Below are positions 5,465-46,308 of a stretch of 64,000 nt of DNA, in pieces. Positions within the stretch are counted from its first letter, which is position 1, and each line of letters starts with the position of its first letter. The notes below the pieces were generated by a model that was not told the DNA's origin, did no database searches, and worked only from the letters and a program-made list of their open reading frames with translations. Location of the stretch: NCBI RefSeq assembly GCF_000969905.1, contig NZ_CP009520.1, forward strand, positions 2,914,001 through 2,978,000, written 5' to 3'. Both the position numbers and the translations under genes were made by a program. This DNA is from Methanosarcina vacuolata Z-761 (GTDB lineage Archaea; Halobacteriota; Methanosarcinia; Methanosarcinales; Methanosarcinaceae).

Positions 5465-6154
5465 TTACTTAGGGCAAATTTCCTTGAGGCCAGCAGCTAC
5501 ATCAGCCAGAAGTTCGATAGGAATTCCCATAATCATTTCTTCGTCTGCGATTTTGGTGTATGTCCTGCTGCCGCTACAACCGACTGTGACTCCGATTTTG
5601 CCTTCTTTATATACATTTACAACTCCGTCTGAACACAGGCTCTGCTTCCCTGCAAAACTCGCTTCGACCCGGCCTCCGGTTTTATACATTGCAGCCTGTG
5701 TGAGTAACATTATTTGTTTAGGCTTACCGATAATCACAACAACATCAGGGATAAACGTGGCTTTTTCCAGAGGGGAGTACAGGATAGCTTCTGTTGAGTT
5801 TGGGGGAAGCTTGGGAACTCTTTCAAGGGTACGCCTTGCAGCGCCCTGGGTGCTGAACTGTTTGAGTTTATTAAAATAAAACTCTCCACTTGCGACCTTA
5901 GGAGGCATTTCGCCAAGGCCCATTGCGCCAGCGCCACCTTTACACATCTGGTCATCGATAAGGGTATAGAACTCCTCACCTGTTCTTCTCACTCTGTCAA
6001 CCAGCTGGCAGTGCCTCATAGCTTCATCTACTTCTTTCATTCCTCCAGGAATTTCTCCTCCTTTCGGGATCAGCTTCACTGCAACAGGAGAAGTCTCCAG
6101 TTTCAGGCAGTCTACAATTTCTTGTCCATATTTATTTATCTCTTTTACATCCAT
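5465..6154 (-). CDS. DUF169 family protein
   Basis: A 229-residue protein starting MDVKEINKYGQEIV. The early segment LETSPVAVKLIP, a central Cys (DDQMCKGG) and the C-terminal VGCSGSRTYT are typical of DUF169, a family common in methanogens and other anaerobes with no assigned reaction. No signal peptide or membrane segment. The conserved cysteines suggest a metal or cofactor site, which is inference. It stands alone between the MITE and tRNA-Leu. Confidence 0.8.
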   Translation of the reverse strand: MDVKEINKYGQEIVDCLKLETSPVAVKLIPKGGEIPGGMKEVDEAMRHCQLVDRVRRTGEEFYTLIDDQMCKGGAGAMGLGEMPPKVASGEFYFNKLKQFSTQGAARRTLERVPKLPPNSTEAILYSPLEKATFIPDVVVIIGKPKQIMLLTQAAMYKTGGRVEASFAGKQSLCSDGVVNVYKEGKIGVTVGCSGSRTYTKIADEEMIMGIPIELLADVAAGLKEICPK

Positions 6155-6811
6155 GTTCTCAACTCGGGTTTTGAAATTTTTGTTACTTTTAAGATAGTAA
6201 TACTGTTTTAGAACTTCATAAGTATTTTCAAAATTTGTTTGTCTGGTTGTCTAGTTCCGACAAATAAAACATGACAATTTTTGATCAAAATATTCCTAAA
6301 AAGTTTAAGAGTTATTTTATCAGTTACGGGCAAATTCTTGTAAGATACAGACAAATAATACATGATAAGATTCAATATAAGTATTCCCGAGTTTATATGA
6401 ATACAGGCAATTTCTCGCAGTACTGTCTTTTTTGTCCGATTTTATTTCAGTACTGAGAACTTACTAAATGAAATTTAGGGGTTTTGGGAGTATGGAAAAT
6501 TCACCCTATATTTGGTAGGTCGACATAAGGGATTTGAATATTATGTATCATCTTCAAATTGTATGGGTAAAAGTAAATTTCATGTATTTGCTGAAAAGTT
6601 ATAAACTTTATCAAGTATGAAAAACAACATCAAGCGATACATTAGACTTTATAACTACATAATAAAATTGTGGCATAATTATTGAGTTGGAAAATTCTCC
6701 ATTGAATTTGAAGATGATACGATAGCGTAAACTAAAGAACCTTGAGAATCCTTGAAAAAAACCTGTAGAAATGTATGAAACCTTAAATAAAAGCTAATAA
6801 AAAAGTTTGAG
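6155..6811. other. Intergenic, nothing recognised
   Basis: AT-rich gap upstream of the DUF169 gene. A 61-codon open frame at 6271-6456 has no coding character. The motif gacaaataa recurs near 6256 and 6349. Confidence 0.6.
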
Positions 6812-6896
6812 TGCGAGAGGTGCGATTCGAACGCACGAATTCCTACGAAACTGGACTCTGAATCCAGCGCCTTTGACCTGGCTGGGCAACTCTCGC
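6812..6896 (-). tRNA. tRNA-Leu (anticodon CAG)
   Basis: On the minus strand the acceptor arm GCGAGAG pairs with CTCTCGC. The anticodon stem CTGGA/TCCAG encloses the loop TTCAGAG with anticodon CAG. A long variable arm marks a class II tRNA, and the T-arm is GTGCG-TTCGAAT-CGCAC. The discriminator is A; CCA is not encoded. Confidence 0.95.
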
Positions 6897-7118
6897 ACGA
6901 TGTAGCTTATGTTGCAGGAGAAATAGTAGTGCTCTTTGTTCTTATACTTTTTCCTTGAAAGCCTGCTCGGCGGGCGAAATTCGTTTAAACTCTTACAATA
7001 ATTTCCTTTTTTAGGAACCGGTTTTAAGCAAGTTTAAACTAAGATTTAAAACCGCAGAAGCCGAAAAATCCCTGAGCATTTATAATCTATATAAAGTAGG
7101 TTGGAATTGATGAAATTT

Positions 7119-9536: not shown

Positions 9537-10080
9537 TTTTATTCTCCTGGTTTTAAAAAGATTCCTATTATTTTCAAGTATAAGTATGGTTTCAATATGT
9601 ACTCATAATAAGGTGAAATAGATGAGATAAGAAAAAGGTAATGAATTTTCAGTCCTCAAAACCTTTCAATGCTGCTTTATGCAGCTGTCTCTTTTTATTG
9701 ACAATTTGCTGATTACTCATTAACAATTTGCTGATTACTCATTAACAATTTGCTGATTACTCGTTAATTATTTATTTGCAGTTTGTTGGCAACTTGCTGG
9801 CAATTTATTACCAAATACTTTAGTAAAGAATATACTGAAGGACCTCCTAGTTCTTTATTTCTTCTAATAAATATCTTTTCATTGTCAGGCTCCAAATTTA
9901 ACTAAAAATTTTCCTTTTTGAGATCGGTTTCAGATTTTTGCTCCACCTTTTCCAGTGATTGAAATCCTTTTTCCATGAATAGGATATCTCAGGTTTTCCT
10001 GGCGGGGTAAAACCAGCCCTTTTCCTGAGACGAAAATCCTAATTTTTATAAAGTAAAAACTAATTAGACTATTTCAGGAG
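9537..10080. other. Divergent intergenic region with 22-bp triplication and promoter
   Basis: Three 22-bp units acaatttgctgattactcatta occupy 9701-9766 (the third has a single change), followed by looser variants of the same words to about 9810. A TATA-like tttttataaa at 10043-10052 sits at a suitable distance for a very short leader ahead of the carboxymuconolactone-decarboxylase-like gene. No other gene seen. Confidence 0.7.
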
Positions 10081-10089
10081 ATGAAAAGC

Positions 10090-10401
10090 ATGAATCAAAA
10101 TCCATATGAAATCTTCCAGAAAGAATGTCCTGAAGTAGCAGCACGTTTTAATGACCTTATTGAAGCCCAGAAAGCGTTGAAAGGCCTTGATGCTAAAACA
10201 AAACAATTGATTACCATAGCCATCCAGACTGCGAACCGAAACCCACGAGGCGTACAGATGCATGCAATGATGGCAAGGAACGAGGGTGCAGCTCGTGAAG
10301 AAATTATCGCTGCAGTGGTTCTGAACCTTCACCATTCCGGTTTTGCTAAAGTTCTTGAGTGCCTTCCTGCAGCAATTGATGGATTTGAAGGTAAAATCTG
10401 A
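10090..10401 (+). CDS. Carboxymuconolactone decarboxylase / AhpD-like small protein
   Basis: A 103-residue all-helical protein. The central segment (LDAKTKQLITIAIQTANRN, then VQMHAMMARNEGAAREEI) matches the CMD/AhpD fold. The CxxC redox pair of true AhpD proteins is absent: no Cys precedes the conserved His. Peroxidase-linked disulfide activity is therefore unlikely and the reaction is unknown. AGGAG at 10076-10080 abuts the first ATG (10081) but is 9 bases from the second (10090), so I prefer the latter. Confidence 0.85.
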   Translation: MNQNPYEIFQKECPEVAARFNDLIEAQKALKGLDAKTKQLITIAIQTANRNPRGVQMHAMMARNEGAAREEIIAAVVLNLHHSGFAKVLECLPAAIDGFEGKI

Positions 10402-10437
10402 AAAACTTCAGTATCGATAAGTGCTCTCGCACTTCCT

Positions 10438-11001
10438 TTACTTTAAGAGGTCGCGTGCACTTACGAGAGGTACAAGCTCCGTACCTGCCTCTTTTAAGTT
10501 TTCTATTGCTCCTTCTTCCCTGTCCACAACACTGATTACATATTTGACGCTTGCTCCGGTTTCCCTGACAACCTCAATTGCGTTCCTGACCGAACCTCCA
10601 CTTGTTGTTACGTCTTCGAGCATTACAAGCCTGTCTTCCGGTCTAATATCGCCCACAAACCTGCTCTTTGTACCGTAGTCCTTTATAGATTTCCTGACTA
10701 TAAGCAGAGGAAGCTCGGTTTCCATAGAAACTGCAGTTGCTAATGGCACACCTCCAAGTTCCACTCCTGCTATTATGTTCACATCCATCTGTTTTATCCT
10801 GAATGCTGCCTGTCGTGCTATAAGTTTCAGGGTTTTAGGGTCAGTACTGGCCTTTTTGATGTCTATATAATACTTGCTTTTCTTTCCTGAGGCAAGTGTG
10901 AAATCCCCGTAGCGAACGGCTCCGCAGGCCTTGAGGGCTGCGATTAGTTCCTGTTTCTGATTCTCAATGTTATTTCCTGTTTCTAAATTTGTTTTGCTCA
11001 T
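10438..11001 (-). CDS. pyrE: Orotate phosphoribosyltransferase
   Basis: A 187-residue protein. The fold begins with IAALKACGAVRYGDF-like and SGKKSKYYIDIKKA motifs that bind orotate, and the PRPP loop is LVMLEDVTTSGGS. It converts orotate and PRPP to OMP in pyrimidine synthesis. This is the canonical enzyme, in contrast to the helix-turn-helix version at 1847-2461. It is followed by carS on the same strand upstream with an 89-base gap, and pyrG lies further upstream, so pyrimidine functions cluster loosely. Confidence 0.93.
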   Translation of the reverse strand: MSKTNLETGNNIENQKQELIAALKACGAVRYGDFTLASGKKSKYYIDIKKASTDPKTLKLIARQAAFRIKQMDVNIIAGVELGGVPLATAVSMETELPLLIVRKSIKDYGTKSRFVGDIRPEDRLVMLEDVTTSGGSVRNAIEVVRETGASVKYVISVVDREEGAIENLKEAGTELVPLVSARDLLK

Positions 11002-11090
11002 TCTCTCACCGTATTTGCAGCCTTATTAGCGCTATAAGTGCTTTATTAAAGTTCTTCCTGTACTGATTCTTATGAATTTCCAGTATAATT

Positions 11091-11621
11091 TCACCAGGGT
11101 TCTTTCTTTACACCTATAAAGTATCCGATTATATTTGTTGCAAGATGGAGCAGAGGCGTTATTATAATAACGGTAAGCATGATCCCGTGAGTGAAATTAC
11201 TCACAAACCACTCAGGGGCTACAAGGTATGTAAATACCCAGGCTCCCACAACAAAATCAAGCTGGTCTACCAGAGGAAGAGATGCTCCTCTTTTCAGGCC
11301 CATCCTGCGCTTGAAAAAGCTCTTGAACATATCCCCGAACAGAGCGCCGGATGCGAGGGCGAGCACAATTATTAAAGAGCTTTTGTAATCCGGGCCAAAG
11401 GCAGGCATTTTGATCCCCATAACCTCAAACCCTCTGGAACTCAGCCAGATCTCAATACATCCTGCAATAAACCCGCAAAATATACCTGAAAAGAGCCCTC
11501 TATAAGTCTTTCCGTCTCCAAGGATCCTTCTTCCATCCTTATAGGTCTTACCCCAATCAATCGGCTTTCCGCCACCAAAAACAGCTGCAAATGGATTGGA
11601 AAGGTATGCTGGAAGCATCAA
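11091..11621 (-). CDS. carS: CDP-archaeol synthase (CTP:2,3-di-O-geranylgeranylglycerol-1-phosphate cytidyltransferase)
   Basis: A 176-residue integral membrane protein. Conserved PAYLSNPFAAVFGGG, the ILGDGKTYRGL cytidyltransferase-like signature, FGDMFKSFFKRRMGLKRG and LPLVDQLDFV are characteristic of CarS. It activates archaeal ether lipid precursors with CTP in the cytoplasmic membrane. The start is uncertain: the frame opens with TTG at 11621 followed by ATG, yet the upstream in-frame sequence (to about 11730) still reads as a plausible helix (ITIELIIKAFWL) expected at the N terminus of the family, with no ATG, GTG or TTG ahead of it. Confidence 0.9.
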   Translation of the reverse strand: MMLPAYLSNPFAAVFGGGKPIDWGKTYKDGRRILGDGKTYRGLFSGIFCGFIAGCIEIWLSSRGFEVMGIKMPAFGPDYKSSLIIVLALASGALFGDMFKSFFKRRMGLKRGASLPLVDQLDFVVGAWVFTYLVAPEWFVSNFTHGIMLTVIIITPLLHLATNIIGYFIGVKKEPW

Positions 11622-31370: not shown

Positions 31371-32321
31371 ATGTCCAGAAGCAAGGTAAGAAATATTCTC
31401 CTTCTGAAGCAAATTCACAGTGCAGTAACCCATATCAAAAAAGGCAAGCTGGATAAAGCCCTTGAAACCCTAGATAAAGCCGAAGACTCTGCAAGGAAAG
31501 CAAAAGCCACTGACGCTGTATATTACATTCTTTTTATGCGCGGAGGCATCTATTATACTGAGTCGAAATACGATGAAGCCCTCGAAACCTACGAAAAGGC
31601 CCTCGATGCAGGCTTAGAACTTCTTAAAAACGATCCTGAAAACACCAATTACCAGCACTACATGGGTACAACTCTGAGCAATACCGGAAACCTTCTCAAA
31701 AGAAAAGGCGAAAATCCGCAAGCTGCGGAATATTATGTCCGCGCCCGTGAGACCTATGAAAACCTCCTGGCAAAAGAACCTGAAAATGCAGTCTTCCGGT
31801 CTGCTGCCGGCGAGAACCTGAACAATTATGCAGCTCTCCTTACGGACATGGGTTCTTTTGAGCAAGCATGCGAAGTCCTCAGTCAGGCAATTGAGCTTTA
31901 TGAAAAGCTGCTTGAAGAAAAGCCAGAAAACCTGGGCTATCAGGCTGAACTTGCAGTTGCGCTCAGCCGGCTTGGAAACTGCCTGGTCCAGCAGGGCCCG
32001 GAAAAATCCGATACTGCAAAACAGAGCCTTGAAAAAGCCCTGACTATGCAGGAAAACATCTTCAACCAGCAGCCTGAAGATGCAACTATCAAAGATGCTA
32101 TTGCTTTAACCCGGGAAAGGCTTGAAAAACTGGAAACAATGAAAATACAGGAAAAGCCTGAAAGCCTGGAAAACCTGGAGAATTCGGAAAATCAGGAAAA
32201 GCAAGAAAATCTGGAAGAACAGGAAACCTTGGAGAACCCGGAAAAACTGAAACAGGAAAAGCCAGAAACTCTGGAAAACCTGGAGAATCCGGAAAATTCG
32301 GAAAAGCCGGAAAAGCTTTAA
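31371..32321 (+). CDS. Tetratricopeptide-repeat protein
   Basis: A 316-residue protein with no signal peptide. Residues about 10-245 are helical TPR-like repeats; the units around LKNDPENTNYQHYMGTTLSN, LAKEPENAVFRSAAGENLNN and LEEKPENLGYQAELAVALSR share the 48-residue spacing seen in the large TPR-nitrilase protein at 34928. The C-terminal 60 residues are low-complexity Glu/Asn/Pro/Lys (repeats such as ENLENPEN). Function unknown; probably a scaffold. An IS element now separates it from the LonB-like membrane protein and the larger TPR gene. Confidence 0.82.
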   Translation: MSRSKVRNILLLKQIHSAVTHIKKGKLDKALETLDKAEDSARKAKATDAVYYILFMRGGIYYTESKYDEALETYEKALDAGLELLKNDPENTNYQHYMGTTLSNTGNLLKRKGENPQAAEYYVRARETYENLLAKEPENAVFRSAAGENLNNYAALLTDMGSFEQACEVLSQAIELYEKLLEEKPENLGYQAELAVALSRLGNCLVQQGPEKSDTAKQSLEKALTMQENIFNQQPEDATIKDAIALTRERLEKLETMKIQEKPESLENLENSENQEKQENLEEQETLENPEKLKQEKPETLENLENPENSEKPEKL

Positions 32322-34363: not shown

Positions 34364-34702
34364 TTAAAGGTTATCCTTTGAAAACAGCAGCATGTGTACA
34401 TAAAGCAAAATCAGCAGTCCTGCAACGACCCCTGAGAGGAACTGGAAAGTAAAGTACGAGTAAACAACCAGCCCAAGCACGAAGAGAGTAACAAGAATGT
34501 TTGCAAGCCGGACTTTCTTCCTCATCTGGGGATCTTGAGGAGTTCCTGCTTCTTTTTCATCCAGGGAACACTCCCTTAAGTAACTCCTTTCCCTTTTTAT
34601 TAGGAAATAAAGCCTCAGAATGAGAACATCAATAACTATGCCCCAGAGAAGCTGTCCGATATAAAAGGTATAAAAGAGGATAGCTGCGAGAAAAATACTC
34701 AC
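34364..34702 (-). CDS. Small four-helix membrane protein built from two LonB-type membrane hairpins
   Basis: About 112 residues from the GTG at 34702. Two hydrophobic halves each resemble the membrane insertion of LonB 4 kb away: the first carries the identical run GQLLWGI in the same position, and the second (RKKVRLANILVTLFVLGLVV, then YSYF) matches LonB at about 20 of 42 positions by eye. There is no AAA+ or protease sequence. The frame stays open upstream (IEIPEFRKKEKIYLLL) behind a strong GGGGGGAGGG, so a nonstandard start near 34735 is possible. It may be a LonB partner, decoy or anchor, or a duplicated remnant; function unknown. Confidence 0.6.
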   Translation of the reverse strand: MSIFLAAILFYTFYIGQLLWGIVIDVLILRLYFLIKRERSYLRECSLDEKEAGTPQDPQMRKKVRLANILVTLFVLGLVVYSYFTFQFLSGVVAGLLILLYVHMLLFSKDNL

Positions 34703-34927
34703 AAGCAGCAGGTATATCTTTTCTTTTTTTCTAAACTCAGGAATCTCGATTCTACCCTCCCCCCGAATCTCGATCTTATTCTTATTTCATTTATCTGTAC
34801 ACATTATTTACCTTTTCCCTGTGTGCTAAGAATAAGAAGCAAAACACCTCTTATTCTCACACTTTTTGCTACAACTCCATAGTAAAAAAACAAAATGTTT
34901 AAACCATCCTGAATTTATTCTTTTATT
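34703..34927. other. Divergent intergenic region
   Basis: Contains a G-rich SD-like block on the minus strand (about 34755-34765) and AT-rich promoter-like sequence for the plus-strand TPR-nitrilase gene. No gene seen. Confidence 0.4.
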
Positions 34928-37900
34928 ATGTCAGAGAGTTTGAGAGATTCAGCAGAAAGACAATTTCAAAAGACTTTATCTTTAATGCAAGAAGGCAAAT
35001 TAGAAGAAGCTTTAAAAGAACTTGAACAAGCCGAAGAAACCGCAAAGTTTCTCTTAAAAGATCCCAAAAACGAATTTTTTCAGTCAAACTTCCAGAAGAG
35101 CTTTGACGATGTTTTCACTCTTGGGTATAACTTACATAAAATAGGACGTTTCTCTCAAGCGCAAAATTTCTACGAACTATCTCTATTGATCTCTCAAAAA
35201 CTCCTCAATAACGATCCCGAAAATATAGCTTACCAATCTTACGTAGGAGGGACACTAAACAATTTAGGAAACTTGCTTTCTGATATGGGACGCATTGAAG
35301 AGGCAAAACAAAGGTATGAAAAAGCACTCGAAATGAGGCAAAAACTACTCAAAAACGGCCCCGAAAACGTATCTTACCAATCTTACGTAGGAAAGACACT
35401 AAACAATTTGGGAAACTTGCTTAAAAATATGGGGCTCGTTGAAGAGGCGAAACAAAGGTACGAAAAAGCACTCATAATCTATGAAAAACTACTCGAAAGC
35501 GACTCCGAAAACGTATCTTACCAGTCTTACGTAGGAATGATACTAAATAATTTAGGTACCTTGCTTTCTGAGATGGGGTTCATTGAAGAGGCAAAACAAA
35601 GGTATGAAAAAACACTCGAGATCTATGAAAAACTACCCGAAAACGTATCTTACCAATCTTATGTAGGAACGACACTAAACAATTTAGGAAACTTGCTTTC
35701 TGATATTGGGCTCATTGAAGAGGCGAAACAAAGGTACGAAAAAGCACTCAAAATGAGGCAAAAACTCCTCAATAACGACCCCAAAAACATAGCTTACCAA
35801 TCAGATGTAGCAATGACACTAAACAATTTAGGAAACTTGCTTAAAAATATGGGGCTCGTTGAAGAGGCGAAACAAAGGTACGAAGAAGCACTCGAAATCT
35901 ATGAAAAACTACTCGAAAGCGACCCCGAAAACGTATCTTACCAATTTTACATAGGAGGGACACTGAGCAATTCAGGTGCCTTGCTTTCTAATATGGGATT
36001 CATTGAAGAGGCGAAACAAAGGTACGAAAAAGCACTCGAAATTTACACCGAACCTATGCAATACCTGACGATAGGTAGAAAGACCCATTCGATAATGAAA
36101 CTTATTGAGTTAAATACAGAACAGGCAAAAAAAGACAATCAATATGATCAGATGAGATGCCTGAAAGAAGCAGTCGAGCTGTGCAAAAAATATCAGGATT
36201 TTTTTATTAAATATGAGCTGAAGCACGAAAGAGAACTGGTTACTGGGGCAGGGCTGAGTGCATATATTGACTTTCTGCTCAAGAACATCAGAGCTGAGCC
36301 CAATACAGGAAAACGTGCAGGTGAATATAAAAAAGCTATAAAAGCAGTTGAAGAGCTAAAATCTGTTGAAGAAGACGAGGCTGTTTCAAAACTATGTGAT
36401 TCGACCTCATATTACCTTTCTGGAAGAAAACTTGTAAATGAAGCACTTTCTTCAAAGCAACCTAATCTGGAGCTGCTCAATCAGGCAATAGAACAGTTTA
36501 AAAAAGCAACTGAAACTTATGAAAAAGCAAACGTTTGCTATTGCGTCTATACCGGGCTGTTTGAAATTCTAACGGAAATTGAAAAATCTAAAGAAGTTGA
36601 TGTGCCAAGATTAAAGAATGTTGTAGAGGAGGTTACCAGAACTCTGTCTGATGATGATAATCCAAGCATCTGCGCTTCATTTATGGACCTCCCACAGATT
36701 TTTGAAGAAAAAGATTGTAAAACTAGGGATAAACTTCTTTTTGATTTCTTGGAAAAAATTAATTCAATTGAATATCGGCCTCTTGAAAACCTTTTTGAGT
36801 ATATTCACAGGAGAACAAAGGACTATTTTGAAGAGCCTTTCAACCCTATCAAGCTGATCTACGAAAATTGGAAACTCAAAGTTATCTTTGATGACCCTGA
36901 AAAAGTAAAAAGCAAGTTAACAATCAAAGCAGGAAACAGAACGCTTTTTAACAAATTCCTTACCTCCGAAGAAAAAGAAAACAATTCTCTTGAAATTGAT
37001 TATCTTGAAAAAAAATATTTCCCGGAAGGAAAAGACGAAATTACTTTCAGCGTAAGAGGGCAGAAAAAACCAGTCATAAAGTCAATTGATTATTTTGAGA
37101 GCATACAAGGAAATAAGAAAATTCGGATATTACAACATGACTGCTGCAATAACTCTTTTGAAGGTTCTAATTTACGAATTGCGGCTGTGCAATTGAAATA
37201 TCATGCTTATGAAGAAGATTCCATTGTGAAACTTACGGCTGATGAAGCTTATTACAGGAAAATAATGGCAATTCTTGAAGCTGTGAAGGAAAAAGCTGAC
37301 ATTTTGGTATTCCCTGAGTTTTCTATACCTTTTGAATATCTCGAAGATATACAGCAATATGCCGATGAAAATGGGGTTATTGTCGTTGCAGGCAGCCACT
37401 ATGTTCAGGAAAAGAACCTTGAGAAGTATGGAAAACTGTTCATCCGCGAGTTTAGAGAAGAAGATTTAAGGAAAAATATCTCTCCTATTGTGATTCCTGA
37501 TTCTAAAATCATACACAATGAAAAAGCGCTGGCAGCAAGGGATGAAAGAGGATGCGGTTTTGAGGAAGGTATGGAAGCAGGTGAAGTGAACCACATTCTC
37601 AAACTTAGAGAAGACCTTAGAGTGGGGGTTATGATCTGTTATGAGTATGTGACTGATGATTTGAGAAAGCGTTTGATACGTGCCTGCGACGTAATCCTTG
37701 TGCCTCAGACAAATCCATCTCCAAAGATATTTTATAGAAAAGCAAACAGTGAGCTCAATATCCAGCTTTGTGCTGGAAACCGGGCACACGTTATGGTAAA
37801 TGGAATCTATACCTGGGGAAAGGATAAAACAACAATACATGGAGGGTCTACTGGAGTTGTTTTAACACTTGACAAGCACTCGTACTCAAAACTTGGGGAG

Positions 37901-38308
37901 AATGAAACCGTCATAGAGCCAGTTGACGGCGTAATGGAACAATTTGTATATATAATGTCAATAAATACGGATTTTAATACATCAAGGGATACTCAGACAG
38001 GGCAGGAGCCAATAACCTTAAAGCTCATCCACATTTTTGAAGAAGCTGAAATTCCCGATAAATTAAAAGAAAAAGGCAGGGAATTTGTGGAAATAATTAA
38101 CAGAATAAACTCCTGTAATGATCATAATGCATTGAAATGCATGCTTATAAAAGAAAGGGGAAGTATTGAGAAAAAAACAGATGATGTTGAAACGTCCCTA
38201 ATAAAACAATTCTCTCCTTTAACAAACAAACATATTCAGAATCTTGATGAACGTAAAATTGAAGAATTAAAAGAAAAATGCCTTTTTCTTGTTATCCCTA
38301 ATAATTAA
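34928..38308 (+). CDS. TPR-nitrilase fusion protein (carbon-nitrogen hydrolase domain)
   Basis: An 1126-residue protein. Residues about 1-95 are a helical N-terminal region; about 94-378 are six near-identical 48-residue TPR-like units (each with YQSYVG, LNNLGNLL and EEAKQRYEKAL); about 380-740 are a helical middle part ending in a beta-rich segment. Residues about 750-1040 are a nitrilase-superfamily hydrolase with Glu797 in VFPEFSIP, candidate Lys866 in NEKALAARDE and Cys904 in VMICYEYV, so the Glu-Lys-Cys triad appears intact. It would hydrolyse a C-N bond of an unknown substrate under control of the repeat scaffold. The fourth unit lacks four residues. No signal peptide. Confidence 0.85.
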   Translation: MSESLRDSAERQFQKTLSLMQEGKLEEALKELEQAEETAKFLLKDPKNEFFQSNFQKSFDDVFTLGYNLHKIGRFSQAQNFYELSLLISQKLLNNDPENIAYQSYVGGTLNNLGNLLSDMGRIEEAKQRYEKALEMRQKLLKNGPENVSYQSYVGKTLNNLGNLLKNMGLVEEAKQRYEKALIIYEKLLESDSENVSYQSYVGMILNNLGTLLSEMGFIEEAKQRYEKTLEIYEKLPENVSYQSYVGTTLNNLGNLLSDIGLIEEAKQRYEKALKMRQKLLNNDPKNIAYQSDVAMTLNNLGNLLKNMGLVEEAKQRYEEALEIYEKLLESDPENVSYQFYIGGTLSNSGALLSNMGFIEEAKQRYEKALEIYTEPMQYLTIGRKTHSIMKLIELNTEQAKKDNQYDQMRCLKEAVELCKKYQDFFIKYELKHERELVTGAGLSAYIDFLLKNIRAEPNTGKRAGEYKKAIKAVEELKSVEEDEAVSKLCDSTSYYLSGRKLVNEALSSKQPNLELLNQAIEQFKKATETYEKANVCYCVYTGLFEILTEIEKSKEVDVPRLKNVVEEVTRTLSDDDNPSICASFMDLPQIFEEKDCKTRDKLLFDFLEKINSIEYRPLENLFEYIHRRTKDYFEEPFNPIKLIYENWKLKVIFDDPEKVKSKLTIKAGNRTLFNKFLTSEEKENNSLEIDYLEKKYFPEGKDEITFSVRGQKKPVIKSIDYFESIQGNKKIRILQHDCCNNSFEGSNLRIAAVQLKYHAYEEDSIVKLTADEAYYRKIMAILEAVKEKADILVFPEFSIPFEYLEDIQQYADENGVIVVAGSHYVQEKNLEKYGKLFIREFREEDLRKNISPIVIPDSKIIHNEKALAARDERGCGFEEGMEAGEVNHILKLREDLRVGVMICYEYVTDDLRKRLIRACDVILVPQTNPSPKIFYRKANSELNIQLCAGNRAHVMVNGIYTWGKDKTTIHGGSTGVVLTLDKHSYSKLGENETVIEPVDGVMEQFVYIMSINTDFNTSRDTQTGQEPITLKLIHIFEEAEIPDKLKEKGREFVEIINRINSCNDHNALKCMLIKERGSIEKKTDDVETSLIKQFSPLTNKHIQNLDERKIEELKEKCLFLVIPNN

Positions 38309-38545
38309 AATCAATCTCAGAACTAATAATGTGCAGGCTTCGTGAGAATAATTCCAAATTTTTCCGTTTATTGCACTTTCACTGATTCTTCTGCTTGGGT
38401 TCTATTCACAAAAAGGCCGCTCTCCTTCGTCGAGCGTGACAAGCTCCCGTAAAGATGCTACTCTCCAGTCCCGGACAATAAGCAATCAAAAAAACGAAAG
38501 GATGGAAAAAAAGTAATTTCCACCAAAAAATCCTTTATCGGCTAA
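38309..38545. other. Intergenic between convergent genes
   Basis: GC-richer patch at 38405-38470 with short inverted words (gctctcctt, gtcgagcgtgacaagctc). No gene seen. Confidence 0.4.
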
Positions 38546-38758
38546 TTACGAAGTGAACAAATCGAAAACGTCTCCCAACATGCTGCTCTTGGTCTGGTAG
38601 AACTCGGTGTATTTGCAGCGCTTGCAGGTGACATGGGTGAATCTTTTGTTCTGGATATCGAAGATTTTACTTAAAAAGCCGCCTGTGGTGCGGATCTCGC
38701 CGGTTTCGTAGGTGGTATTTCCGCATTTGGGGCAGATGAAATGAATATCTTTACTCAT
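38546..38758 (-). CDS. Small zinc-ribbon protein (DUF2082-like)
   Basis: 70 residues. Two Cys pairs, CPKCGN near residue 9 and CKRCKYTEFY near residue 45, form a zinc ribbon with a Gly-rich middle (TTGGFLSKIFDIQ). It resembles predicted nucleic-acid-binding Zn-ribbon proteins; partner unknown. ATG start is clear. Confidence 0.8.
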   Translation of the reverse strand: MSKDIHFICPKCGNTTYETGEIRTTGGFLSKIFDIQNKRFTHVTCKRCKYTEFYQTKSSMLGDVFDLFTS

Positions 38759-38966
38759 TTTATGGCCTCTTTACTCTCTTTTAGATAATCTAAACGGTGG
38801 AATACCTTTAGTGTTGCGATATTTAATGATATTGCAAGTAGTCTAAATATAGAAACCCTTGCAATAAAAATGACGCATTTTCCGTTTTGAAATCGGTCAG
38901 GCATGATAGAAAAAAGATTTGCAGGAAAGAGATATTAAAAAAGAAGAATATTACTGAGTAAGAACC

Positions 38967-45436: not shown

Positions 45437-45494
45437 TGATGATGCGCACTATGGAGTTGCACTTTTGTGCGAAAAACAGAAGCAACAAACTACT

Positions 45495-45568
45495 GGGCTC
45501 GTGGTCTAGACGGTTATGACGTCGCCTTGACATGGCGGAGGTCCTGAGTTCGAATCTCAGCGGGCCCA
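45495..45568 (+). tRNA. tRNA-Val (anticodon GAC), copy 1
   Basis: Acceptor GGGCTCG pairs with CGGGCCC; anticodon loop TTGACAT in stem CGCC/GGCG; T-arm CTGAG-TTCGAAT-CTCAG. CCA not encoded. Confidence 0.95.
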
Positions 45569-45663
45569 CTAAAAAAATTTCCGGAGATTTTTCCGGAAAG
45601 TGAAAAAGAAAACGAAAATTCAGGATATCACTTAATCGAAGTATAACTTGAATTAACCTGCTT

Positions 45664-45735
45664 GCCCAGGTAGCTCAGTGGGAGAGCGCTGCCCTGAAGA
45701 GGCAGTTGTCCCCGGTTCGAATCCGGGTCTGGGCA
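45664..45735 (+). tRNA. tRNA-Phe (anticodon GAA), copy 1
   Basis: Acceptor GCCCAGG pairs with TCTGGGC; anticodon stem CTGCC/GGCAG with loop CTGAAGA; T-arm CCCGG-TTCGAAT-CCGGG. CCA follows directly (45736-45738) and may be encoded. Confidence 0.95.
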
Positions 45736-45745
45736 CCATCTTCAA

Positions 45746-45817
45746 ACATCAGTAGTGTAGCGGTCATCACCGGGCGTTGCCAACGCTCGAACCCGGGTTC
45801 GAATCCCGGCTGGTGTA
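45746..45817 (+). tRNA. tRNA-Gly (anticodon GCC), copy 1
   Basis: Acceptor ACATCAG pairs with CTGGTGT; anticodon stem GGGCG/CGCTC with loop TTGCCAA; T-arm with TTCGAAT. The leading A and one G-U pair in the acceptor are slightly unusual. Confidence 0.9.
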
Positions 45818-45876
45818 TTACTTTTTTAATACAGTGCTTCGGATAAGTATTCCGACGCAAAAATCATAAGCAACAT

Positions 45877-45950
45877 GGGCTCGTGGTCTAGACGGTTATG
45901 ACGTCGCCTTGACATGGCGGAGGTCCTGAGTTCGAATCTCAGCGGGCCCA
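45877..45950 (+). tRNA. tRNA-Val (anticodon GAC), copy 2
   Basis: Identical to the copy at 45495-45568. Confidence 0.95.
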
Positions 45951-46044
45951 CTAAAAAAATTTCCGGAGATTTTTCCGGAAAGTGAAAAAGAAAACGAAAA
46001 TTAGGCTATCACTTAATCGAAGTATAACTTGAATTAACCTGCTT

Positions 46045-46116
46045 GCCCAGGTAGCTCAGTGGGAGAGCGCTGCCCTGAAGAGGCAGTTGTCCCCGGTTCG
46101 AATCCGGGTCTGGGCA
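46045..46116 (+). tRNA. tRNA-Phe (anticodon GAA), copy 2
   Basis: Identical to the copy at 45664-45735, again followed by CCA. Confidence 0.95.
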
Positions 46117-46126
46117 CCATCTTCAA

Positions 46127-46198
46127 ACATCAGTAGTGTAGCGGTCATCACCGGGCGTTGCCAACGCTCGAACCCGGGTTCGAATCCCGGCTGGTGTA
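46127..46198 (+). tRNA. tRNA-Gly (anticodon GCC), copy 2
   Basis: Identical to the copy at 45746-45817. Confidence 0.9.
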
Positions 46199-46308
46199 TA
46201 TTTAATTTTTTCCAATTTATTGAGTCACTTTCGAATAAGGTCAGGTTCAAGAATAAGGTAATTGTTAAGAATAACAGGTTGTATCGGTAAGTTTTTTACC
46301 TTTTTTCT

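What the first reader, a model, noticed from the sequence alone, without database searches (positions are those of the whole stretch)
34928..38308. TPR-nitrilase fusion with six near-identical 48-residue repeats
One 1126-residue protein joins a TPR-like scaffold to a nitrilase-superfamily hydrolase whose Glu-Lys-Cys residues (797, 866, 904) appear present. The six 48-residue units are nearly identical at the protein and DNA level, which suggests recent expansion and a binding surface under fast copy-number change. A scaffold-plus-hydrolase layout next to an IS and a LonB-derived membrane protein resembles a signalling or conflict effector, but that role is inference; no partner nuclease or sensor is adjacent.
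Basis: partly seen in the sequence, partly recalled or inferred. Interest (0 to 1): 0.7.

Follow-up and report, generated by a model that had tools for sequence, protein, structure and literature searches.

The report
Archaeal TPR-array nitrilase, probable immune effector
A Methanosarcina protein joins a variable-length repeat array to a hydrolase domain that its relatives use as the weapon of antiviral systems (CRISPR, defence reverse transcriptases, NLR-like proteins), so it is probably a one-protein immune sensor and effector kept at a fast-changing spot in the chromosome.

Summary
The gene is real: 34928-38308 (+), 1126 aa, six tandem TPR-type units (five of 48 aa, one of 44), then a helical region, a beta domain, a nitrilase domain and a helical tail. 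"Near-identical" is overstated: units are 66-93% alike in DNA. Glu797, Lys866 and Cys904 are at the stated positions. Glu and Lys are invariant in 17 homologues; Cys is lost in one. The nitrilase model (pTM 0.89) matches solved nitrilases at Z about 21.

The C-terminal half is related to defence effectors. It scores against PADLOC's RT_UG5-nitrilase. Its helical-plus-nitrilase region recurs in CARF- and TIR-CARF-TPR-nitrilase proteins inside type III-A CRISPR operons. The same nitrilase is fused to NACHT-HEAT and to a reverse transcriptase elsewhere in the family.

The gene occupies one conserved chromosomal slot, is found in about half of 31 Methanosarcina species, with 2 to 12 units, pseudogenes and remnants. 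Its C-terminal phylogeny strongly contradicts that of the flanking housekeeping genes.

Best reading: a stand-alone TPR sensor fused to a toxic amidase, working like DRT1 without the RT. Activation and substrate are inferred. It fails membership in the DRT and CARF families. New variant of a known kind.

The parts
34928..38308 (+). TPR-nitrilase gene, 1126 aa, ATG start, TAA stop
   Evidence: ORF, translation, Pfam, PADLOC
34928..35230 (+). N-terminal TPR-like helical cap, residues 1-101
   Evidence: helices in AlphaFold2 model
35231..36043 (+). six tandem TPR-type units (five of 48 aa, one of 44), residues 102-372
   Evidence: TRF, unit table, paired-helix model mostly pLDDT 86-96
36050..36847 (+). 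helical region, residues 375-640, shared with CARF-TPR-nitrilases of type III CRISPR loci
   Evidence: profile matches E 1e-20 to 1e-24 to G001, G184, G025 CARF proteins; alignment
36848..37162 (+). beta-rich domain, residues 641-745
   Evidence: strands in model; lies inside the RT_UG5-nitrilase match 542-930
37163..38041 (+). nitrilase (CN_hydrolase) domain, residues 746-1038
   Evidence: Pfam 750-910; model pLDDT 86.5, pTM 0.89; VIA Z 21.4 to a CN-hydrolase
37316..37318 (+). catalytic Glu797 codon (VFPEFS)
   Evidence: invariant in 17 homologues and 24 nitrilases
37523..37525 (+). catalytic Lys866 codon (HNEK)
   Evidence: invariant
37637..37639 (+). catalytic Cys904 codon (MICYE)
   Evidence: present in all homologues except G007, where it is Gly
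38042..38305 (+). C-terminal helical tail, residues 1039-1126, only in the TPR-nitrilases; possible lid or regulator
   Evidence: alignment A4, model
34703..38966 (.). the variable chromosomal slot, between the conserved mem112 and 152-aa genes, that holds this gene
   Evidence: synteny over about 27 Methanosarcinaceae loci

Best explanation
It is most likely a single-protein immune effector. The TPR array (plus cap) binds an infection- or damage-associated protein or peptide, the helical and beta regions pass that state on, and the C-terminal nitrilase, an amidase-type Glu-Lys-Cys hydrolase, is switched on. Switching probably works by oligomerisation or release of a lid, as in DRT1. It then destroys an essential amide-bearing metabolite and stops the cell. 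Shown: domains, triad residues, fold, sequence relationship to defence nitrilases, patchy presence, decay, variable unit number, allele exchange at one slot. Inferred: that it is anti-viral, that the TPRs are the sensor, that activation is by assembly, and that it kills. The substrate is unknown; NAD(H)-related amides are one speculative candidate, because related proteins pair the nitrilase with TIR or DUF4062 domains.
For: PADLOC RT_UG5-nitrilase at E 3.3e-14 over residues 542-930; homologues score the same. Helical region 387-635 matches, outside the TPR-nitrilases themselves, only CARF-nitrilases among 393 Halobacteriota genomes. Those genes lie directly after csm5 in Cas10-Csm2-5 operons, with a CRISPR array of about 40 repeats in L137. 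The same nitrilase is fused to DUF4062-NACHT-HEAT (P0014, P0015) and to an RT (P0016). DRT1 precedent: C1116A abolishes phage defence (PMC13275509); a UG5 RT-nitrilase + 1TM system was validated (PMC9122126). Ecology: matches in 15 of 31 species, broken in G003, remnants in others. Incongruent C-terminal tree, AU p 6.5e-8 and 4e-110. Unit number 2-12. Variable residues of the unit (4, 7, 14, 17, 18) fall largely on one face of helix A around invariant Asn11.
Against: No experiment on any TPR-nitrilase. The slot is flanked by housekeeping genes, not a defence island; only the G025 copy sits beside a DUF4011 helicase of PADLOC class PDC-S37. No relatives in phages, plasmids or viral contigs. TPR arrays are common in Methanosarcina and need not be immune. 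One homologue (G007) lacks the Cys. The Pfam CN_hydrolase score is marginal.
Confidence: 0.66

Rival explanations
1. Cell-cell conflict or allorecognition factor rather than anti-viral immunity: divergent alleles at one fixed slot mark kin in aggregating Methanosarcina, and mismatch triggers the nitrilase.
For: Divergent allele classes at one locus with strong incongruence; no links to phage or plasmid records. TPR conflict systems have been described mainly in multicellular prokaryotes (PMC7159879, abstract seen).
Against: No secretion signal or export partner was seen; the closest effector relatives are intracellular anti-viral systems. Ordinary immune genes show the same pattern.
Confidence: 0.12
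2. A housekeeping or stress-regulated amidase on a TPR scaffold, with no role in conflict.
For: Fold matches ordinary omega-amidases and the glutaminase domain of NAD synthetase; neighbours are housekeeping genes.
Against: Absent or broken in about half of the genus; C-terminal half exchanged between lineages; sequence kinship with DRT and CARF nitrilases rather than with metabolic ones.
Confidence: 0.15
3. A degenerating relic of a CARF-TPR-nitrilase of type III CRISPR that lost its CARF and is now non-functional.
For: Shared helical region with CARF-TPR-nitrilases; pseudogenes in G003 and others; Cys lost in G007.
Against: Glu and Lys invariant and Cys nearly so across several genera; long intact ORFs at 50-60% identity imply sustained purifying selection; the beta domain and tail are absent from the CARF forms aligned.
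Confidence: 0.07

Closest known systems
Class 3 defence-associated reverse transcriptases (DRT1, UG5 RT-nitrilase)
   Same: C-terminal nitrilase with catalytic Cys, preceded by an alpha-helical repeat region; PADLOC UG5 profile matches residues 542-930
   Different: no reverse transcriptase; a tandem TPR array stands in its place, so the DNA-adduct control of DRT1 (PMC13275509) cannot apply; extra 88-aa tail
CARF_m7--CARF_nitrilase (PADLOC PDLC01989), type III CRISPR ancillary protein, and its TIR-CARF-TPR-nitrilase neighbour
   Same: helical region 387-635 and nitrilase; TPRs in the longer forms
   Different: no CARF or TIR, no Cas10 operon seen next to it; carries a beta domain that the CARF forms lack
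NACHT-HEAT-nitrilase (P0014, P0015) with DUF4062
   Same: long repeat array of very similar units joined to the same nitrilase
   Different: has a STAND NTPase and a TIR-like DUF4062; the repeats are HEAT, not TPR
Nitrilase superfamily amidases (PH0642, Nit2, NAD synthetase glutaminase domain)
   Same: fold, Glu-Lys-Cys
   Different: about 12-20% identity; free-standing metabolic enzymes or biosynthetic domains

Membership tests
Nitrilase superfamily | alpha-beta-beta-alpha nitrilase fold | tested here: met
   model pTM 0.89; VIA Z 18.9-21.4 in all 50 rows shown, model 102-395; Foldseek E 6.5e-9
Nitrilase superfamily | Glu-Lys-Cys catalytic residues | tested here: met
   Glu and Lys invariant, Cys 90% or more over 24 rows; Glu and Cys columns align with solved nitrilases. 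Three-dimensional distances could not be measured because coordinates are not given
Nitrilase superfamily | amide or nitrile hydrolysis | not testable with these tools
   needs enzymology
Class 3 DRT (DRT1, UG5) | reverse transcriptase domain in the same protein | tested here: not met
   no RT family in Pfam, and in PADLOC only the nitrilase parts of the DRT models match; the N-terminal part is TPR
Class 3 DRT (DRT1, UG5) | C-terminal nitrilase of the DRT type | tested here: met
   PDLC03780 E 3.3e-14, PDLC03804 E 7.7e-9
CARF-nitrilase type III CRISPR effector | CARF domain | tested here: not met
   no CARF hit in P0001 at E 1, whereas P0008, P0009, P0018, P0019 have hits to CARF models
CARF-nitrilase type III CRISPR effector | encoded in a Cas10-csm operon | tested here: inconclusive
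   window ORF list shows housekeeping-type neighbours, but the window was not scanned gene by gene for cas
STAND/NLR-type receptor | NACHT, NB-ARC or other STAND NTPase | tested here: not met
   no NTPase domain in Pfam
TPR-S conflict-system sensor (PF20308) | TPR-S domain | tested here: inconclusive
   31.4 bits against cut-off 27.6, but over the same residues as generic TPR models that score far higher

The most novel reading that the evidence does not exclude
The slot between the membrane gene and the 152-aa gene is an archaeal counterpart of a plant or fungal resistance locus: one fixed chromosomal position holding divergent, trans-species alleles of an NTPase-free receptor. A TPR array with an asparagine ladder and variable neighbouring positions reads extended peptides, is tuned by unit number, and fires a nitrilase that the same archaea also plug into CRISPR type III, RT and NACHT systems.
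Probability: 0.3. Interest if true: 0.82.

Novelty: new variant of a known kind. Interest (0 to 1): 0.64.

Why it matters
Nitrilases were called uncommon in anti-phage defence, and the DRT1 substrate is unknown (PMC13275509). Here one archaeal family links the same nitrilase to at least four inputs: TPR alone, CARF/TIR-CARF in type III-A CRISPR, NACHT-HEAT, and RT. That would make the nitrilase a general immune output rather than a DRT oddity, offers an RT-free protein in which to find its substrate, and gives a genetically tractable genus in which presence, absence and unit number vary naturally at one locus.

Tried and rejected
Single-sequence scan of genome contigs found nothing; the alignment scan found 14 Methanosarcinaceae/Methanosarcinales loci plus one weak Kordia match. 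tblastn of phages and plasmids: no match. Viral contigs: none. Sequence search of solved structures with the C-terminal half alone: none; with the profile, weak NAD-synthetase and nitrilase matches. DRT1 (PDB 9YFD) did not appear among the fold matches, probably because the library ends in April 2026; I do not read this as a difference. The full-length model was only pLDDT 75 with a poor Lys866 region, so the C-terminal part was refolded with 24 diverse rows. Fold search with the full-length model was swamped by TPR proteins. The neighbours as partners: rejected, because mem112, the short TPR gene and LonB are found with or without the nitrilase. Repeat number among strains of one species could not be tested: one genome per species is held. 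Paper searches found no description of a TPR-nitrilase system or of a CARF-nitrilase function in the held library.

Full report
WHAT IS THERE. The ORF at 34928-38308 (+) encodes 1126 aa. Pfam finds TPR families over about residues 104-422, and CN_hydrolase at 750-910 just above cut-off. TRF finds a tandem array at 35195-36042 with periods 144 and 420. The six units start at residues 102, 150, 198, 242, 290 and 338; the third is 44 aa. Pairwise DNA identity is 66-93%, and the best pairs are units 1/4 and 2/5, which fits a 420-bp three-unit duplication at 88%.

FOLD AND ACTIVE SITE. An AlphaFold2 model of the whole protein shows paired helices through residue 372, mostly at pLDDT 86-96 within the array, then a second helical region to about 635, a beta domain, the nitrilase and a helical tail. 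A separate model of residues 639-1126 built on 24 diverse rows is good (pLDDT 86.5, pTM 0.89). It matches solved nitrilase-superfamily enzymes: Foldseek E down to 6.5e-9, VIA Z 21.4 (rmsd 3.3, 227 aligned) to a Xanthomonas CN-hydrolase and 20.8 to Nit2 and an NAD synthetase with a glutaminase domain. Glu797 and Lys866 are invariant in 17 TPR-nitrilases and in all 24 rows that also include CARF, NACHT and RT forms; Cys904 is present in all but one, G007, which has Gly (codon GGC). A profile search places the Glu and Cys columns on those of solved enzymes.

WHO ITS RELATIVES ARE. PADLOC's RT_UG5-nitrilase model matches residues 542-930 at E 3.3e-14, and all tested homologues do likewise. A profile of the C-terminal half, run against 393 Halobacteriota genomes, matched only Methanosarcina and one sister genus; a family-wide run gave 22 of 112 genomes in 4 of 14 genera. 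The hits outside the TPR-nitrilases proper were telling. In G001, G184 and G025 the helical region (profile 13-267, E 1e-20 to 1e-24) belongs to CARF-TPR-nitrilase or TIR-CARF-TPR-nitrilase proteins of 1078-1168 aa, each followed by a short CARF_m7--CARF_nitrilase. They follow csm5 in type III-A operons. In G184 (L137) Cas10, Csm2, Csm3, Csm4 and Csm5 were confirmed by PADLOC, with an array of about 40 repeats nearby; in G001 and G025 the same gene order was read by eye. In the same archaeal family the nitrilase is also joined to DUF4062-NACHT-HEAT (2005 and 1466 aa, G008 and G012) and to a reverse transcriptase (822 aa, G419). A wider run found the nitrilase in 13 of 295 Halobacteriota genomes, some with further N-terminal partners such as a radical-SAM-like domain in G220 (by eye).

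Experimental precedent exists for the effector but not for this protein. In DRT1 the nitrilase mutation C1116A abolishes phage defence, immunity is abortive, the nitrilase forms the tetrameric core, and the C terminus acts as a lid; the substrate is unknown (PMC13275509). A UG5 RT-nitrilase with a transmembrane partner was also validated (PMC9122126). DUF4062 is a TIR-like NADase (PMC13174449).

THE LOCUS. Across the genus the order pmbA - LonB - short TPR protein - small membrane protein - [slot] - 152-aa protein - thrC-like - comDE-like is conserved; the 152-aa gene is in 30 of 31 genomes. The slot holds a TPR-nitrilase in ten species (in G012, G013 and G016 cut by contig ends or gaps; in G001 as two abutting ORFs), a different TPR-only gene in about six, and only short TPR-like matches or nothing in others. 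The G003 copy is broken by stops. G007 and G025 carry it elsewhere, in G025 next to a DUF4011 helicase that PADLOC calls PDC-S37 and Hhe-like. Unit number ranges from 2 (G024, G025) through 5 and 6 to 12 (G002).

ALLELE EXCHANGE. G005 and G013 have LonB at 96-98% identity to the window but nitrilase domains at only 57%, while the sister genus has LonB at 77-84% and nitrilase at 65-67%. Trees confirm this: flanking genes unite the window with G003, G005 and G013; the C-terminal tree puts the window and G003 apart from G005/G013/G016/G012 and puts G024 with the sister genus. AU tests reject window+G005+G013 as a clade (p 6.5e-8) and G024+G008 (p 4e-110); the groups were chosen from the flanking-gene pattern. 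Either divergent alleles are old and shared across species, or they are exchanged; both are usual for immune loci. I did not separate the two.

THE ARRAY. Over 53 units from nine proteins, helix A has near-invariant Q2, L9, N10, N11, L12 and G13; its variable positions are 4, 7, 14, 17 and 18, and 4, 7, 11, 14 and 18 fall on one face by helical geometry. In TPR proteins that face lines the concave groove (established knowledge, not tested here). A conserved Asn beside variable residues resembles the asparagine ladders that hold peptide backbones in kinesin light chain and LGN (from my own knowledge). This supports, but does not prove, ligand reading by the array.

MECHANISM. Best account: array binds trigger; helical and beta regions transmit; nitrilase oligomerises or opens its lid; an amide metabolite is destroyed; the cell stops. 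Only the parts list, kinship and evolutionary pattern are shown; the sensing, activation, substrate and outcome are inference. A speculative substrate class is nicotinamide-bearing metabolites, because two related architectures pair the nitrilase with an NADase-type domain (TIR or DUF4062).

VERDICT. Not a DRT (no RT) and not a CARF effector (no CARF), but it probably works like them at the output end. A new variant of a known kind, with useful testability.

Noticed in passing
L137:7021-10524 and 5515-7005; L032:1916-5368 and 420-1796; L138:6752-9985 and 10014-11390: TIR-CARF-TPR-nitrilase or CARF-TPR-nitrilase genes paired with a short CARF-nitrilase, downstream of csm5 in type III-A CRISPR loci of Methanosarcinaceae; I found no paper describing them.
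   Followed up: partly
L162:3085-9102; L163:501-4901: DUF4062-NACHT-HEAT-nitrilase proteins (2005 and 1466 aa) with long arrays of very similar HEAT units: a possible dual NADase plus nitrilase NLR-like effector.
   Followed up: partly
L023:3-10925: Three-gene set in G007: STAND-like protein with TPRs, a 611-aa protein with a nitrilase-like motif (TPEYSCPW) and no family match, and a 1457-aa TPR-nitrilase whose catalytic Cys is Gly; possibly an active and inactive nitrilase pair.
   Followed up: no
window 34364-34702: The 112-aa membrane protein resembles the membrane segment of LonB (38-45% by tblastn) and is conserved genus-wide, independent of the nitrilase.
   Followed up: partly
window 31371-32321: Short TPR protein with the same unit type as the nitrilase array and a low-complexity Glu/Lys/Asn tail; conserved genus-wide.
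   Followed up: no
window 45494-46199: A 381-bp direct repeat at 99% whose consensus contains what looks like a tRNA gene.
   Followed up: no
L099:4426-6687 (elsewhere in the window's own genome): A 753-aa protein carries units up to 67% identical to the nitrilase array, so units may move between TPR genes.
   Followed up: no
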